This document shows, in pieces, positions 53,241 to 64,000 of a stretch of DNA of 64,000 bases. The position numbers and the translations under genes were made by a program. Position 1 is the stretch's first letter, and the number at the start of each line of letters is the position of its first letter. Source of the stretch: Verrucomicrobiota bacterium JB024 (GTDB taxonomy: Bacteria > Verrucomicrobiota > Verrucomicrobiia > Opitutales > Cerasicoccaceae); contig JAUTCS010000159.1 of NCBI GenBank assembly GCA_030673825.1, positions 62,001-126,000 on the forward strand. Direction: 5' to 3'. The notes beneath the pieces are model-generated. The model was not told where the DNA came from. It saw only the letters and a program-made list of their open reading frames with translations, and made no database searches.

Positions 53241-54281
53241 CTACGAATTGGGTTCCCCGAGGGAACCCAGCCACCGGTCCACGCGGGCGTTGAGGACGGC
53301 GAGCCAGGCGGGGTGGTTGTTCATGCAGGGGATTTGCTGGAAATCCTCACCCCCGGCGTGAAGGAAGGTCTCCTTGCCTTCCATGGCAATCTCCTCCAGC
53401 GTTTCCAGGCAGTCCGAGACGAAGGCCGGGCAGATCACGCGCAGGCGCTTGACGCCTTCCTGGGGCAGCTCCTGCAGGCGGAAATCCGTGTAGGGCTTGA
53501 GCCACGGGTCGCGCCCGAGGCGCGACTGGAAAGAGACGGCGACCTTGTCCGCCGGGAGGCCCGCCCGCTCGGTAAAGGCGCGCGTGGTCGCGTAGCACTG
53601 GTGCCGGTAGCAGGTGGCGTGCGCGGGGTTTGCGGTTTCGCAGCAGCCGGGCACGCACAGGCAATGCGCGTGCGAGGGATCGGATTTGCGCACGTGGCGC
53701 TCGGGGATGCCGTGGTAGGAAAACAGCAGCAGGTCGTAGGGCTCCTCCAGGTAGGGGCGGGCGCTCGCGATGAGCGCGTCGATGTAGTCCTCGTCCTGAT
53801 AAAAGGGCTGGAGAGTCGTGGTCTTGACCGAAAAGTCCTGCGCGGCCAGTTCCTCGGTCACGCGCACGAGCACGGTCTCGTAGCTGCTCATGGCGTAGTG
53901 CGGGTACAGCGGCATGATGAACAAGTGCGTCACGCCCGCAGCCTTGAGCCGGGAAATGGATTCGGGGATGGACGGCGTGCCGTAGCGCATGGCCAGCTCG
54001 ACCATGACCTCGCCGTGCGCCTTGGCGACGGCGGTCTGTTGCTGCTGGCTGGAGACGATCAGGGGCGAACCCTCGGGGGTCCAGACCTTCGCGTAGGCGG
54101 CGGCGGAGCGCTTCGGGCGGAAGGGCAGGATCAGCCCGCGCACAACAAAGTTGCGTACCGGAGCGGGCGCGTCGATCACGCGCTCGTCGAGCAGGAACTC
54201 CTTCAGGTAGCGGCGCACGTCGGCCACCGCCGTGGAGTCGGGGGAACCGAGGTTGAGCAACAGGACGGCTGGTTTGACCAT
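53241..54281 (-). CDS. hemH: Ferrochelatase
   Basis: A 346-residue HemH, inserting iron into protoporphyrin IX (or coproporphyrin III in some lineages). The start L-L-N-L-G-S-P-D, the active-site His in F-S-Y-H-G-I-P-E-R-H, and the C-terminal P-A-F-V-S-D-C-L-E-T-L-E-E region are intact. A Cys-rich insert (C-L-C-V-P-G-C-C-E) is present near residue 208. It lies 62 nt after the serine hydrolase gene in the heme cluster. Confidence 0.95.
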   Translation of the reverse strand: MVKPAVLLLNLGSPDSTAVADVRRYLKEFLLDERVIDAPAPVRNFVVRGLILPFRPKRSAAAYAKVWTPEGSPLIVSSQQQQTAVAKAHGEVMVELAMRYGTPSIPESISRLKAAGVTHLFIMPLYPHYAMSSYETVLVRVTEELAAQDFSVKTTTLQPFYQDEDYIDALIASARPYLEEPYDLLLFSYHGIPERHVRKSDPSHAHCLCVPGCCETANPAHATCYRHQCYATTRAFTERAGLPADKVAVSFQSRLGRDPWLKPYTDFRLQELPQEGVKRLRVICPAFVSDCLETLEEIAMEGKETFLHAGGEDFQQIPCMNNHPAWLAVLNARVDRWLGSLGEPNS

Positions 54282-56355: not shown

Positions 56356-57708
56356 CTATTGCGCGGCGATTTTGTGGCCCAGTTCGATGCCGTTGGTCAG
56401 GCACTGGCCGACGGCGATACCGCCGCGGTAGTTGCCGCATAGGTGCAGGCCGGGGTTTTCGCGCTCGGCCTTGTCGATCATGGCGAGGAAGTTGCCGTGG
56501 CCGACATTGTACTGCGGGATGGCCTTGCGCCAGAGCGTGCGCTCGGTGAAGGTCGGCTCGCCCGTGACCCCGAGGATGGCGGCCAGCTCGGTCTTGAGCA
56601 GGGCGAGGTGCTCCTCCTCGCTCAGGGTGGCCAGGGTGGGCTGGCGCATGCCGCCGATGAAGGCAGTCAGGAGCACATGGCCCTCGGGGGCGCGGTCCGA
56701 ATAGACGGACGAGGGGAAAAGCACGCCGAGCACCTTGCGCTGCTCGACGGCGGGCACGAGCACGCCGAAGCCGTCCAGCGCGTGCCCGACCTGCTCGCGG
56801 CGGTAGCCGACGGAGAAGGATGTGACCGGCGGGTAAGGGATCTCGTGCAGGTCGAACAGGGTCTGTTTGGCGTTCTCGGGCAGCGGCAGGTCGCGCACGG
56901 CATAGGCGGGCACGGCGAGGATGAGCGTGTCGGCCTCGGCGCTGTGCTGGCCGCCGTCGGCCTCCCAGCTCACCAGCCAGCGGTCGGTGCGGCTGATGGC
57001 GGTGACGGTGGCACCGAGGGTGAGCGCATCCCCGAGGCGCTCGGCGAGCTTGGCGGGTAGGGCCTGCATGCCGTCTTTAAAGGTGGCCATGACAGCCCGG
57101 AAGCTGCCGGGGGCCTTGCGCATCCCGCCCTTGAACGCGCCCTTGACCAGCGAACCGTAGCGGTTTTCGAGTTCGTGAATCTTCGGGAAGGCATGCTGGG
57201 CTGAGAGGCGCTTGGGGTCGCCCGCGTAGATGCCGGAGACGGCGGGCTCGGCCATAAAATCGAGCGCATCCTGCCCGAGACGGCGCTGCACGAAGCTGGC
57301 CAGCGACTCCTCGGCGAGGTTGGCGGGCTTTTTGACAAAGGGTTCCTTCATCAGGCGCAGCTTGCCCTTGGCGGAGAGCAGGGGGCTTTTGAAAAACTTG
57401 CCGGGGCCGGTTGGCACGGCGACGGTTTCGCCGCCCTTGTAAATGTAGCGGTTTTTCGCCACGTCAGAGGAGAGCAGAAGCTCGTCACCCAGTCCCAGTT
57501 CGCCCAGGAACATCGCCGTCTGCAGGCTGCTGAGCATCATGGTGTTGGGGCCGGTCTCGACCAGATAGCCGTCTCGCCGGACGGTCTGGATGCAGCCGCC
57601 GGTGCGAGTGCTTTTCTCCAGCAGGCGGACGTCGTACCCGGCCTTTTTCAGGGTGGTGGCGGCGGCAAGACCGGTGATCCCGGCTCCGATGACAACGGCA
57701 GACTTCAT
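56356..57708 (-). CDS. hemG: Protoporphyrinogen/coproporphyrinogen oxidase (HemG/HemY type)
   Basis: A 450-residue FAD enzyme. The dinucleotide site V-I-G-A-G-I-T-G-L-A-A-A-T-T-L is followed by L-L-E-K-S-T-R-T-G-G, and the C-terminus has the FAD-binding G-N-Y-R-G-G-I-A-V-G-Q-C. This is the oxygen-using HemY family (sometimes named hemG in databases), oxidising protoporphyrinogen IX or coproporphyrinogen III. Its start lies 51 nt after the hemN stop. With HemF it forms an aerobic route in this cluster. Confidence 0.93.
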   Translation of the reverse strand: MKSAVVIGAGITGLAAATTLKKAGYDVRLLEKSTRTGGCIQTVRRDGYLVETGPNTMMLSSLQTAMFLGELGLGDELLLSSDVAKNRYIYKGGETVAVPTGPGKFFKSPLLSAKGKLRLMKEPFVKKPANLAEESLASFVQRRLGQDALDFMAEPAVSGIYAGDPKRLSAQHAFPKIHELENRYGSLVKGAFKGGMRKAPGSFRAVMATFKDGMQALPAKLAERLGDALTLGATVTAISRTDRWLVSWEADGGQHSAEADTLILAVPAYAVRDLPLPENAKQTLFDLHEIPYPPVTSFSVGYRREQVGHALDGFGVLVPAVEQRKVLGVLFPSSVYSDRAPEGHVLLTAFIGGMRQPTLATLSEEEHLALLKTELAAILGVTGEPTFTERTLWRKAIPQYNVGHGNFLAMIDKAERENPGLHLCGNYRGGIAVGQCLTNGIELGHKIAAQ

Positions 57709-57759
57709 AGGCGGGCCACGTTAGCGGATGCCCGGCCAAAGGGGAAGCCCAGGATGCGC

Positions 57760-59124
57760 CTAAACGGTTTTCGAGTAGCGGTTTTCCGTCGGCTGGAGGG
57801 TGGCGTCGAAGCACATGGCCAGGTTGCGGATGAAGAACCGGCCCGTCTCAGTCACGCGCAGGTCCCCGGCGGAGAGCTCAACGAGCCCGTCGGCCTGCAT
57901 GGGGGCCAGTTCGGCCAGGGCGGGGGCGAATTTTTCGGTAAAATCGATGCCCCAGCGCTCCCCGAAGGCGCCGAAGTCGAGCCCCATGTCACACATCAGG
58001 CGGGTGATGACGGCGCGGCGCAGTTTGTCCTCGTCGGTCAGGAGGTAGCCGCGTTCCAGGGGGAGCTCCCCGGCGGCGAGGCGGGCGGTGTAGTCCTCCA
58101 GCGCCTTGACGTTCTGGCGGTAGCTGCCCTCGGTCTGGGAAATGGACGACAGCCCGAAGCCGCAGATGTCGAGCCCGGCGCGGGTGCTGTAGCCTTGGAA
58201 ATTACGCTGAAGCGTCCCGGCCCGCTGGGCCACGGCCAGCTCGTCGTCGGCGCGGGCGAAGTGGTCCATCCCGATGTACACGTAACCGGCGCCGGTCAGG
58301 GTCTCCACGATCAGGCGCAGCAGGGCGAGCTTGGTCTGCGGGGTGGGCAGCCCGGCCTTTTCGAGAAGCTTCTGGGCGGGCTTGATCCAGGGCACGTGCG
58401 CGTAGTTGAAGATGGCGAAGCGCTCCGGCTCCAGCGCGAGGACTTCGTCGAGGGTCTTTTTAAAGGACCCGGGGCTCTGGTGCGGCAGGCCGTAAACCAG
58501 GTCGATGTTGAGCGAGGTAAAGCCTGCCCCGCGCAGGAACTCGACGCAGCGGCGGTTCGTCTCCACGGACTGGACGCGGTGGATGGCCTGCTGCACCTGC
58601 GCGTCGCAGTCCTACACGCCGAAGCTCGCCCGCCGTACGCCCATGCGCGCGAACGCCTCCACGTGCTCGCGGGTCAGCCGCCGCGGGTCCAGCTCGACGC
58701 TGCACTCGGCCTTGTCCTCGAAGGTGAAGTGTCGCCGGAGCATCGCCCCGAGGCGGTCGAGCTGCGCCGGGGTGAAAAAGTTCGGCGTGCCCCCGCCGAA
58801 GTGCAGTTGCGCCGCCGGGCGGGCGGGCTTGAGCAGCGGCGTAAAGAGCGTCAGCTCTTTTTCCAGGTCGTCGAGGTAAACGTCGGCGCGGGAGCGGTTG
58901 GTCGTGGTGATGGTGTGGCAGCCGCAGAACCAGCACAGCGACTCGCAGAAGGGCAGGTGCAGGTAGAGCGAGAGCGGCCCCTCGCCGTCGCGCACCTCGT
59001 CGAGCAGCTTGTCCGCCGGAACGTCCGGGGAAAACTGCGTGGCGGGCGGGTAGGAGGTATAGCGCGGCCCCGGCCGGTTGTACTTGGCGATCAGGGCGTC
59101 GGCGGGAAAGGCGGTCGTGCTCAT
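57760..59124 (-). pseudogene. hemN: Oxygen-independent coproporphyrinogen III oxidase with internal TAG
   Basis: The frame from ATG 59124 to the stop at 57760 encodes a complete 454-residue HemN, apart from one in-frame TAG at codon 171 (58614-58612). The radical-SAM cluster motif is C60-E-S-L-C64-W-F-C67-G-C. The TAG replaces the Gln of the conserved S-F-G-V-Q-D motif, a one-base change from CAG; the frame then resumes D-C-D-A-Q-V-Q-Q-A-I-H-R-V-Q. Length and all other motifs are normal, so this is a fresh nonsense mutation, a sequencing error, or suppression. It overlaps the hemE stop by 4 nt. Confidence 0.88.
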
Positions 59125-60146
59125 TGGAAGGTTTTTACAGTCTCGACCAGGGCGGCCACGTTTTCAACCTTTGCCTGCGGGTGGATGCCGTGCCCGAGGT
59201 TAAAGATGTACCCGCCCTGGCCGCGCATGGACGCCAGCAGCGCACGCACGGCGCTGGCGGTCGCCTCCGGGGTGGTGTCGAGGATGGCGGGGTCGAGGTT
59301 GCCCTGAAGCGCGGGGGGATGCTTCAGCCCGTCTCGGTAGCGGGGCAGGTCCACCGTCCAGTCCAGGCTGAGGACTTTGGCCCCGCTGGACAGGAGCGCG
59401 TCGCGCTCGTGGGCGCGGCCCTTGGCGTAGAGGATGATGGGGAAATCCCCCGGCAGGCGCTCGACGATCCGACGTATCCAAAACATGGATACATCGGCAT
59501 AGCGCCCCTCGGGGGCGAGCGCGGCCCAGCTGTCAAAAATCTGGATGGCGTCGGCCCCGGCCTCGATCTGCATCTTGAAATACTCGGTGAGCGCGGCGGT
59601 GAGCTTGTCCATCAGGTGTTCGAAGCATATGGGGTCGCTCTCCAGCAGGGCGAGCAGGCGGGGGAAGCCCTCGGCGCTGCCGCCCTCGACCATGTACGCG
59701 GCCAGGGTCCAGGGGGAGCCGCCAAAGCCCAGCAGCGCCCGCTCTTCGCCGAGGGCGGCGCGGGTCAGGCGCAGGGCCTGAGCCACGTAGTCGAGCCGTT
59801 CGCGCACGGCTTCGGGTTCGAGCGCCTCGATCTGCTCGGATGTCTCCAGCCGGTAGTCCATGCCGATGCCGCCCTGGTCGCGAAAGTGGTAGGGCTGGCC
59901 CATGGCCTCGGGGATGACGAGGATGTCGGAAAAGATGATGGCCGCGTCGAAGCCGTAGCGCCGGATGGGCTGGAGCGTGACCTCGGTGGCCAGCTCCGGG
60001 GTCTTGGCCAGGGTGAGGAAATCGTGCTTCTGTTTCAGTTCGCGGTACTCGGGCAGGTAGCGCCCGGCCTGACGCATCAGCCACATGGGCGGGCGCTCAA
60101 GCACTTCGCCGTGGACGGCGGCGAGAAATCTTTCGCGGGAATTCAT
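59121..60146 (-). CDS. hemE: Uroporphyrinogen decarboxylase
   Basis: A 341-residue HemE, converting uroporphyrinogen III to coproporphyrinogen III. The start P-P-M-W-L-M-R-Q-A-G-R-Y-L-P-E-Y with the substrate Arg residues, F-S-D-I-L-V-I-P-E-A-M-G with the catalytic Asp, and the C-terminal F-N-L-G-H-G-I-H-P are present. Its stop overlaps the hemN start (ATGA), so hemE and hemN are co-translated. Confidence 0.96.
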   Translation of the reverse strand: MNSRERFLAAVHGEVLERPPMWLMRQAGRYLPEYRELKQKHDFLTLAKTPELATEVTLQPIRRYGFDAAIIFSDILVIPEAMGQPYHFRDQGGIGMDYRLETSEQIEALEPEAVRERLDYVAQALRLTRAALGEERALLGFGGSPWTLAAYMVEGGSAEGFPRLLALLESDPICFEHLMDKLTAALTEYFKMQIEAGADAIQIFDSWAALAPEGRYADVSMFWIRRIVERLPGDFPIILYAKGRAHERDALLSSGAKVLSLDWTVDLPRYRDGLKHPPALQGNLDPAILDTTPEATASAVRALLASMRGQGGYIFNLGHGIHPQAKVENVAALVETVKTFQ

Positions 60147-60274: not shown

Positions 60275-61234
<960 letters not shown>

Positions 61235-62565: not shown

Positions 62566-64000
62566 CTAAAACAAATCGAGCTGACCGCCGCCGTCGATGT
62601 CGCTGTCGGCGAGAGGGGCGGGCTTGCGGCGAGGCTTGGGCTCGGGGCGCTGGGCGTCGGGCTCGCGCAGAGTCTGTTGGAGGACGTTGCCCTCGTTTTC
62701 GAGCTCATTGAGGATGGTGCGGGCGCGGTCGATGACCTTGCCCGGCAGCCCGGCCAGGCGGGCGACCTGAATGCCGTAGCTGCGGTCCGCCGCGCCCTCG
62801 ACCACGGTGTGCAGGAAGCGGATTTCGTCGGCCCACTCCTTGACGGAGACGGAGTAGTTGCGCAGGCGCGGGAGGGTGCGCTCCAGTTGGGTGATCTCGT
62901 GGTAGTGGGTGGCGAAAAGCGTGCGCGGGCCCTCGGCGGTCTCGCCGTGGAGGAACTCGATCACGCTCCAGGCGATGCTGAGGCCGTCGTAGGTGCTGGT
63001 GCCCCGGCCAATCTCGTCGAGGATGATGAGGCTGCGGGCGGTGGCGTTGTTGAGGATGTTGGCGGTCTCGTTCATCTCGACCATGAAGGTCGAGTTGCCG
63101 CGGGCGAGCTCGTCGCTGGCCCCGACGCGGGAAAAGATACGGTCCACCAGCCCGAGCCTGCATGCGGTGGCGGGCACCCAGGAGCCGACCTGCGCCATGA
63201 GCGCGATGAGCGCGACCTGGCGGATGTAGGTGGACTTACCGGCCATGTTCGGGCCGGTGATGAGGGCGAGCTGTTCCTCGGAGGCGGAGAGGCGGGTGTC
63301 GTTGGGGACGAAGCTCTGCGTCGTGGCGAAGCCGCGCAGGTCGGCCTTGAGCATCTGCTCGACCACGGGATGGCGGCCCTGCTTGATGTCGAGGAGGTCG
63401 CCGTCGTCGAGCTCGGGGCGGCAGTAGTCCCACTCGCGGGCGAGCTGGGCCCAGCCGACGAACAGGTCGATCTCGGCCAGGGCGAGCGCGGTGGAGGAAA
63501 GCGGGTCGGACTCGGCGAGGATGCGCTCGACCACTTCCTTGAATAGTTCCTCCTCGCGGGCGAGGGCCTTCTCCTCGGCGTGGACGATTTCCTTCTCCTT
63601 CTGGCGCAGCTCCTCGGTCACGAAGCGCTCGGCGTTGACCATGGTCTGGCGGCGGATGTAGTGCTCGGGGACGTTGGCGAGGTTGGACTTGGTCACCTCG
63701 ATGAAGTAGCCGAACGCGCCGTTGTACTTGACCTTGAGGTTCTTGATGCCGGTCTTTTCCTGCTCGTCGCGTTCGAGGTCGCTGATCCAGGTCTTGTTGT
63801 CGGTGGTGAGGCCGCGCAGGCGGTCCAGCTCGGGGTCGAAGCCCTTGCGGATGACACCGCCGTCGGTCAGGTTGCCGGGGAGCTCGTCGTTGAGCGCGGC
63901 GGAGAGGAAATTACGCAGTTCCTCGAAATCGCCGACCGACTCGCGCAGGGACGCGGCGGGGGAGTCCTCCAGCTTAGCTAAAAACTCGCGGATGGCGGGG
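62566..64000 (-). CDS. mutS: DNA mismatch repair protein MutS, partial
   Basis: About 478 C-terminal codons of MutS; the 5' part lies beyond the window edge at 64000. The lever/clamp region (F-G-Y-F-I-E-V-T-K-S-N), Walker A I-T-G-P-N-M-A-G-K-S-T, Walker B I-I-L-D-E-I-G-R-G-T-S-T-Y-D and A-T-H-Y-H-E are present. The C-terminus ends D-G-G-G-Q-L-D-L-F, a beta-clamp-binding-like Q-L-D-L-F tail. The ATPase moves MutS along DNA after mismatch recognition and recruits MutL. Confidence 0.96.
   Translation of the reverse strand, partial: PAIREFLAKLEDSPAASLRESVGDFEELRNFLSAALNDELPGNLTDGGVIRKGFDPELDRLRGLTTDNKTWISDLERDEQEKTGIKNLKVKYNGAFGYFIEVTKSNLANVPEHYIRRQTMVNAERFVTEELRQKEKEIVHAEEKALAREEELFKEVVERILAESDPLSSTALALAEIDLFVGWAQLAREWDYCRPELDDGDLLDIKQGRHPVVEQMLKADLRGFATTQSFVPNDTRLSASEEQLALITGPNMAGKSTYIRQVALIALMAQVGSWVPATACRLGLVDRIFSRVGASDELARGNSTFMVEMNETANILNNATARSLIILDEIGRGTSTYDGLSIAWSVIEFLHGETAEGPRTLFATHYHEITQLERTLPRLRNYSVSVKEWADEIRFLHTVVEGAADRSYGIQVARLAGLPGKVIDRARTILNELENEGNVLQQTLREPDAQRPEPKPRRKPAPLADSDIDGGGQLDLF

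What the first reader, a model, noticed from the sequence alone, without database searches (positions are those of the whole stretch)
57760..59124. hemN carries a single in-frame TAG at the conserved Gln of the SFGVQD motif
Seen: the 454-codon frame is otherwise complete, with CxxxCxxC and all downstream segments, but codon 171 is TAG where the family has Gln (CAG to TAG is one transition). Known: HemN is the anaerobic coproporphyrinogen oxidase, and HemF, encoded two genes away, does the same step with O2. Inference: this is a fresh loss of the anaerobic enzyme in a strain kept under air, a sequencing error, or amber suppression restoring Gln.
Basis: partly seen in the sequence, partly recalled or inferred. 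Interest (0 to 1): 0.72.

Follow-up and report, generated by a model that had tools for sequence, protein, structure and literature searches.

The report
Fresh stop codon inside hemN
A haem-synthesis gene in this bacterium is cut short by one very recent stop codon; the evidence points to an ordinary new mutation or a consensus error rather than a changed genetic code, though a DNA repair gene close by carries the same kind of stop.

Summary
On the minus strand, window 57760-59124, hemN reads as 454 codons with one in-frame TAG at codon 171 (58614-58612), where 108 of 108 aligned relatives have Gln (93 CAG, 15 CAA). Read through, it is a full HemN (559 bits, cut-off 325). Three congeners have intact hemN. 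The broken copy shows no relaxed selection before or after the stop, so the lesion is very young or not real.
Amber decoding is not supported: RF1 is intact; 0 of 44 tRNAs found has anticodon CUA; no PylS above cut-off; TAG ends 167 of 715 coding segments. In 1.24 Mb (724 segments) I judged three in-frame stops real; in a congener one in 373 segments.
New here: mutS, 5.9 kb away, also carries a single TAG, at a codon that is Gln in 9 of 11 aligned relatives; no stop in 18 of 18 relatives. No mutator or clustered-damage signature was seen.
Best reading: a fresh nonsense mutation, tolerated because HemF is intact. A consensus error cannot be excluded without reads.

The parts
57760..59124 (-). 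hemN, oxygen-independent coproporphyrinogen III oxidase, 454 codons with one internal TAG
58612..58614 (-). in-frame TAG, codon 171, at a Gln conserved in 108 of 108 aligned relatives; aligns with residue 172 (Gln) of E. coli HemN (1olt)
58612..59124 (-). N-terminal 170-residue reading frame ending at the TAG (cluster motif included, barrel incomplete)
57760..58596 (-). C-terminal open frame (278 aa) from a GTG at codon 177, five codons lying between it and the TAG; it passes the hemN cut-off alone (340.7 against 324.95 bits), so automatic annotation may call it hemN
59121..60146 (-). hemE, uroporphyrinogen decarboxylase, intact
60275..61231 (-). hemF, oxygen-dependent coproporphyrinogen oxidase, intact (436.6 bits, cut-off 297)
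56356..57708 (-). hemY-type protoporphyrinogen oxidase, intact
53241..54281 (-). hemH, ferrochelatase, intact
62566..64000 (-). mutS, the part inside the window; the gene runs on to 65151 in window numbering and has its own single in-frame TAG at codon 209, outside the window (window-equivalent 64525-64527; contig C159 126525-126527)

Best explanation
hemN carries a real, very recent C-to-T nonsense mutation (Gln codon to TAG) that ends translation at codon 171. Ribosomes stop with the intact RF1, leaving a 170-residue piece without the rest of the radical-SAM barrel and the C-terminal domain, so the cell has no working HemN (inferred). Coproporphyrinogen is then oxidised by the intact HemF, which needs O2, so the loss is tolerated in air and should be harmful without oxygen (inferred). 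The lesion is too young for further decay. The mutS stop 5.9 kb away is a second event of the same kind.
For: One lesion only in a frame that is otherwise complete and full-scoring. Intact orthologues in G001, G002, G003 at 85, 87, 76% identity with hemF-hemE-hemN-hemY in the same order. No relaxation: pN/pS own-G002 0.245 overall, 0.278 before and 0.222 after the stop, against 0.234 for G002-G001; private amino-acid changes own 9 (stop included), G002 8, G001 13, G003 48 of 449 columns. RF1 intact (GGQ and PVT motifs seen, their meaning recalled). No CUA tRNA among 44, nor among the 21 tRNAs that ARAGORN finds in 1.24 Mb of the genome. TAG ends 167 of 715 coding segments with a readable stop. 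In-frame stops are rare: 3 judged real in 724 segments, 1 in 76 sulfatase matches, 0 in 39 ABC-ATPase matches. HemF intact; HemF and HemN both present in 10 of 10 genomes of the family searched, own included.
Against: No reads or sister strains of the same species were available, so a consensus error is open. A second Gln-to-TAG change lies in a core gene only 5.9 kb away, and all three in-frame stops judged real in this genome are TAG. The own-genome scan has 73% simulated sensitivity (1517 of 2067), covers 27% of the genome, and its last sorting was by eye.
Confidence: 0.62

Rival explanations
1. Consensus or assembly error: the true base gives Gln and both hemN and mutS are intact in the organism.
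For: Draft of 163 contigs with 1.99% contamination; two core genes within 6 kb hit; neither gene shows decay; no reads available.
Against: Of 74 frames matched to G001 at 55% identity or more (62 with at least 80% coverage), one apparent frameshift was checked and was not real; short split matches of one 107-codon frame were not pursued. Small-indel errors would anyway be expected only from some platforms. A congener assembled in 2 contigs has a roughly similar rate of in-frame stops, 1 judged real in 373 segments (sensitivity not measured there). A C-to-T excess is absent in the block.
Confidence: 0.3
2. Amber suppression or TAG reassignment: TAG is read as Gln, restoring HemN and MutS.
For: Two in-frame TAGs in core genes at columns where most or all relatives have Gln, all three in-frame stops judged real are TAG, no decay.
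Against: RF1 intact; 0 of 44 tRNAs with CUA; the two Gln tRNAs found (TTG and CTG anticodons) are normal and seen once each; no PylS above cut-off; TAG ends 167 of 715 coding segments; in-frame TAG very rare. CAG-to-TAG is expected to lead: by single transitions from codon counts, TAG would be about 62% of new stops, so 3 of 3 has probability about 0.24.
Confidence: 0.03
3. Split enzyme: translation restarts at the GTG at codon 177, just after the TAG, and the two pieces assemble into a working HemN.
For: An open frame from GTG at 58596 exists; only residues 171-176 would be lost.
Against: The lost residues include the Gln that is invariant in 108 of 108; 0 of 28 near full-length relatives has an interrupted gene; the GTG is a Val codon of the normal frame.
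Confidence: 0.03
4. Mutator lineage: the mutS stop came first, raised the transition rate and produced the hemN stop. This is a cause for the mutation, so it overlaps with the best explanation.
For: The mutS stop at codon 209 of 861 removes most of MutS; the hemN change is a transition; mutL is intact.
Against: No raised rate: over five genes of the block the own lineage has fewer private base changes (204) than G002 (304) or G001 (344) and a lower C-to-T share, 36 of 204 against 77 of 304 and 97 of 344; in-frame stops are not clearly commoner than in G001. A very recent mutS loss would leave no such trace.
Confidence: 0.1

Closest known systems
HemN, oxygen-independent coproporphyrinogen III oxidase (TIGR00538; E. 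coli structure 1olt)
   Same: Whole family profile matched read-through, cluster motif, HemN_C domain, codon 171 aligned with Gln172 of E. coli HemN.
   Different: Frame interrupted by TAG at the conserved Gln.
Young nonsense pseudogenes in bacterial genomes
   Same: Single stop one transition away from the relatives' codon, no further decay, intact orthologues in congeners.
   Different: Nothing, except that a second core gene (mutS) close by has the same kind of lesion.
Stop-codon reassignment UAG to Gln (known in eukaryotic nuclei; PMC8629427, passages seen)
   Same: TAG stands where relatives have Gln.
   Different: RF1 kept, no CUA tRNA found, TAG still a common terminator, in-frame TAG rare. 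A passage of the same paper ascribes some false stop-reassignment calls (in yeasts) to in-frame stops in pseudogenes.

Membership tests
Functional HemN (TIGR00538) | Profile score above curated cut-off | tested here: met
   559.1 against 324.95 bits when read through
Functional HemN (TIGR00538) | C-x3-C-x2-C cluster motif and HemN_C domain | tested here: met
Functional HemN (TIGR00538) | Uninterrupted reading frame | tested here: not met
   TAG at codon 171
Functional HemN (TIGR00538) | Enzyme activity | not testable with these tools
   needs assay or complementation
TAG reassigned to Gln | tRNA with anticodon CUA | tested here: not met
   0 of 44 tRNAs; the assembly is about 95% complete and its tRNA set has gaps, so absence is not proof
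TAG reassigned to Gln | RF1 lost or altered | tested here: not met
   prfA intact, 478.3 bits against 423.25
TAG reassigned to Gln | TAG avoided as terminator and common inside genes | tested here: not met
   TAG ends 167 of 715 segments; 3 internal TAG judged real in 724 segments
Pyrrolysine decoding | PylS present | tested here: not met
   only match 19.7 bits against cut-off 178.15
Nonsense pseudogene | Intact orthologues in close relatives | tested here: met
   G001, G002, G003
Nonsense pseudogene | Base confirmed by reads | not testable with these tools
   no reads held

The most novel reading that the evidence does not exclude
A genome that keeps RF1 and uses TAG as a normal stop nevertheless carries an unassembled amber-suppressing Gln tRNA, so that hemN, mutS and a few other genes with TAG at Gln codons are made at reduced level, giving tunable HemN and MutS.
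Probability: 0.03. Interest if true: 0.75.

Novelty: new member of a known kind. Interest (0 to 1): 0.22.

Why it matters
As it stands it matters little: single nonsense changes in dispensable genes are ordinary, and this one is backed up by HemF. It would matter more if reads confirm both lesions, since a natural strain without MutS and HemN would be a likely mutator tied to oxygen for haem synthesis. It is also a caution: the C-terminal fragment passes the hemN cut-off alone, so an annotation pipeline may list hemN as present.

Tried and rejected
Genome-wide recoding was tested by tRNA, RF1 and PylS searches, by stop usage and by a scan for coding signal on both sides of a stop; rejected. 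At its last setting that scan gave 54 candidates (14 TAG, 24 TAA, 16 TGA), after the script had dropped candidates lying inside coding segments of the other strand. I judged 3 as real internal stops: hemN, mutS and a sulfatase at C1:43528. Most of the rest I dropped by eye as ends of neighbouring genes followed by a new start; some as weak or antisense signal. Six candidates were read in full and four. Searches were earlier versions on less sequence.

The same scan in G001 gave 16 candidates, of which I judged 1 real (a TAG in a frame that looks like an outer-membrane efflux protein, G001:C1:357300), not checked by a family search.

Tblastn of G001 frames on the own stretches flagged five frames with stops: mutS, hemN, and three set aside as likely start- or end-site differences (C83:8939, C88:18644, C88:158540). 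The reverse search flagged five frames in G001, near a start or antisense, one of them the antisense frame of hemN with five stops. On more sequence it flagged seven, of which mutS and hemN are again the only ones I took as real; the two matches of one short 107-codon frame were not pursued. An apparent frameshift at C1:6972-8775 proved to be the gap before a gene that I take for hisA (name recalled). An apparent early start of MutS in the ORF list was only the window edge.

Clustered C-to-T damage was tested on five genes and not seen. If one more of about 62 aligned frames (some of them spurious) is hit at random, the chance that it is one of hemN's five neighbours is about 5 in 61, or 8%; computed after seeing the result. 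So the mutS coincidence is suggestive, not significant.

The sulfatase TAG could not be assigned a residue: 0 of 11 relatives searched has a match at E up to 1e-60. A paper search for mutS, nonsense mutation, mutator, natural isolates and pseudogene together found 0. Of the papers listed, I saw passages of three only.

Full report
Observation. The hemN frame lies on the minus strand at 57760-59124: 454 codons, then its own stop, with a single in-frame TAG at codon 171, 58614-58612. Read through, it matches TIGR00538 over model positions 6-454 of 454 at 559.1 bits (cut-off 324.95) and has the Radical_SAM and HemN_C Pfam domains. Of three HemN-like matches in the own genome it is the only one over the TIGR00538 cut-off: the one on C109 is HemW by its NCBIfam cut-off, and the one on C119 is HutW-like, 381.2 bits, below that family's cut-off of 400. 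The column of the stop is Gln in 108 of 108 aligned relatives, 93 CAG and 15 CAA, and aligns with Gln172 of the E. coli enzyme 1olt. I recall that this Gln contacts S-adenosylmethionine in that structure; I did not check it here.

What organism. The nearest named relatives are Opitutae and Puniceicoccaceae bins and Cerasicoccus at 63-65% HemN identity, and unnamed congeners reach 85-87%. The family is therefore probably Cerasicoccaceae (inference). A passage of PMC10288369 describes that family as obligately aerobic, which would make loss of an oxygen-independent enzyme easy to bear. Whether the assembly is a culture or a metagenome bin is not known; it has 163 contigs, 95.14% completeness and 1.99% contamination.

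Context. The order mutS, a gene of unknown role, hemF, hemE, hemN, hemY is shared with G001 and G002; in G003 the part hemF-hemE-hemN-hemY is shared and mutS lies on another contig. HemF, HemE, HemY and HemH are over their family cut-offs. HemF is found in 37 of 54 genomes searched, own included, 36 above cut-off, and in all 10 of the family. Those 10 genomes also have a HemN each. So HemF is an old partner here, not a recent replacement.

Age of the lesion. pN/pS between own and G002 is 0.245 for hemN, 0.278 before and 0.222 after the stop; G002 against G001 gives 0.234. Private amino-acid changes in hemN are 9 in own (stop included), 8 in G002, 13 in G001 and 48 in G003, of 449 columns. There is no sign of relaxed selection downstream of the stop, so the change is very young or not real.

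Is TAG decoded? RF1 is present and intact at C11 (478.3 bits, cut-off 423.25; frame read). The same search gave a second match at C73, 256.5 bits, below the cut-off, which I take to be RF2 (inference). Forty-four tRNAs were found and typed with ARAGORN: none has CUA, and the Gln tRNAs have anticodons TTG and CTG. I saw no tRNA-Ile with anticodon GAT and no tRNA-Ala with TGC in those lists, so the tRNA set has gaps and absence of a suppressor is not proven. PylS gave only 19.7 bits against 178.15. TAG ends 167 of 715 coding segments with a readable stop, TAA 244, TGA 304. In 1,237,861 bases and 724 coding segments I judged three in-frame stops real: hemN, mutS and a sulfatase at C1:43528, all TAG; simulated sensitivity is 1517 of 2067. 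Over the whole genome, 1 of 76 sulfatase matches has an internal stop, the same sulfatase, and 0 of 39 ABC-ATPase matches. From codon counts (CAG 8726, CAA 2229, TGG 5220, CGA 1145) single transitions would make TAG about 62% of new stops, so three of three is not surprising. A passage of PMC8629427 ascribes some false stop-reassignment calls to in-frame stops in pseudogenes. TAG reassignment is rejected; a rare suppressor is very unlikely.

The neighbour. mutS (C159:124569-127151, partly in the window from 62566) also has one in-frame TAG, codon 209. Read through it is a full MutS (985.9 bits, cut-off 480). In 18 of 18 relatives it has no internal stop. Of 11 relatives aligned at the site, 9 have CAG and 2 have CAT, so this column is not invariant. 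Private amino-acid changes in own mutS are 11, stop included, against 11 in G002 and 16 in G001. mutL is intact.

Link between the two. If mutS loss had raised the mutation rate for long, the block should show it. Over mutS, hemF, hemE, hemN and hemY, own has 204 private base changes against 304 in G002 and 344 in G001; C-to-T on the coding strand is 36, 77 and 97. There is no mutator and no clustered-damage signature. In G001 I judged 1 in-frame stop real in 373 segments, a roughly similar rate. The coincidence of two core genes within 5.9 kb stays unexplained at roughly the 8% level computed after the fact (frames); it is what one would also expect from a locally poor consensus.

Function. 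Translation should end at codon 171, before the rest of the barrel and the C-terminal domain (inferred). HemF can carry the step in air. Passages of PMC5437285 state that in E. coli hemN and hemF can each be inactivated and that HemN works with and without oxygen; so the cost of losing HemN in air should be small but perhaps not nil.

Verdict. Restart after the stop (0.03) and suppression (0.03) are remote. The mutator link (0.10) is a cause for the mutation rather than an alternative to it, so these figures overlap.

Noticed in passing
window 62566-64000 and beyond (contig C159:124569-127151, minus): mutS has a single in-frame TAG at codon 209 where 9 of 11 aligned relatives have Gln; 0 of 18 relatives has a stop in mutS.
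   Followed up: yes
own genome C1:42854-44194 minus (locus L223:2854-4194): A sulfatase frame has one in-frame TAG at C1:43528; no match at E up to 1e-60 in 11 relatives, so the original residue is unknown.
   Followed up: partly
G001:C1:357300 (locus L212): The congener G001 has an in-frame TAG in a frame that looks like an outer-membrane efflux protein (by eye).
   Followed up: no
own genome C22:1-403 (locus L275): A C-terminal MutS fragment with 56% identity to the own MutS sits at a contig start; a contaminant contig or a second MutS.
   Followed up: partly
own genome C119 (locus L274:904-2709): A HutW/ChuW-like radical SAM protein, 381.2 bits, just below the family cut-off of 400.
   Followed up: partly
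window 57754-59307 plus: A 517-codon open frame lies antisense to hemN; the matching G001 stretch has five stops in that frame, so it is probably a by-product of high G+C.
   Followed up: partly
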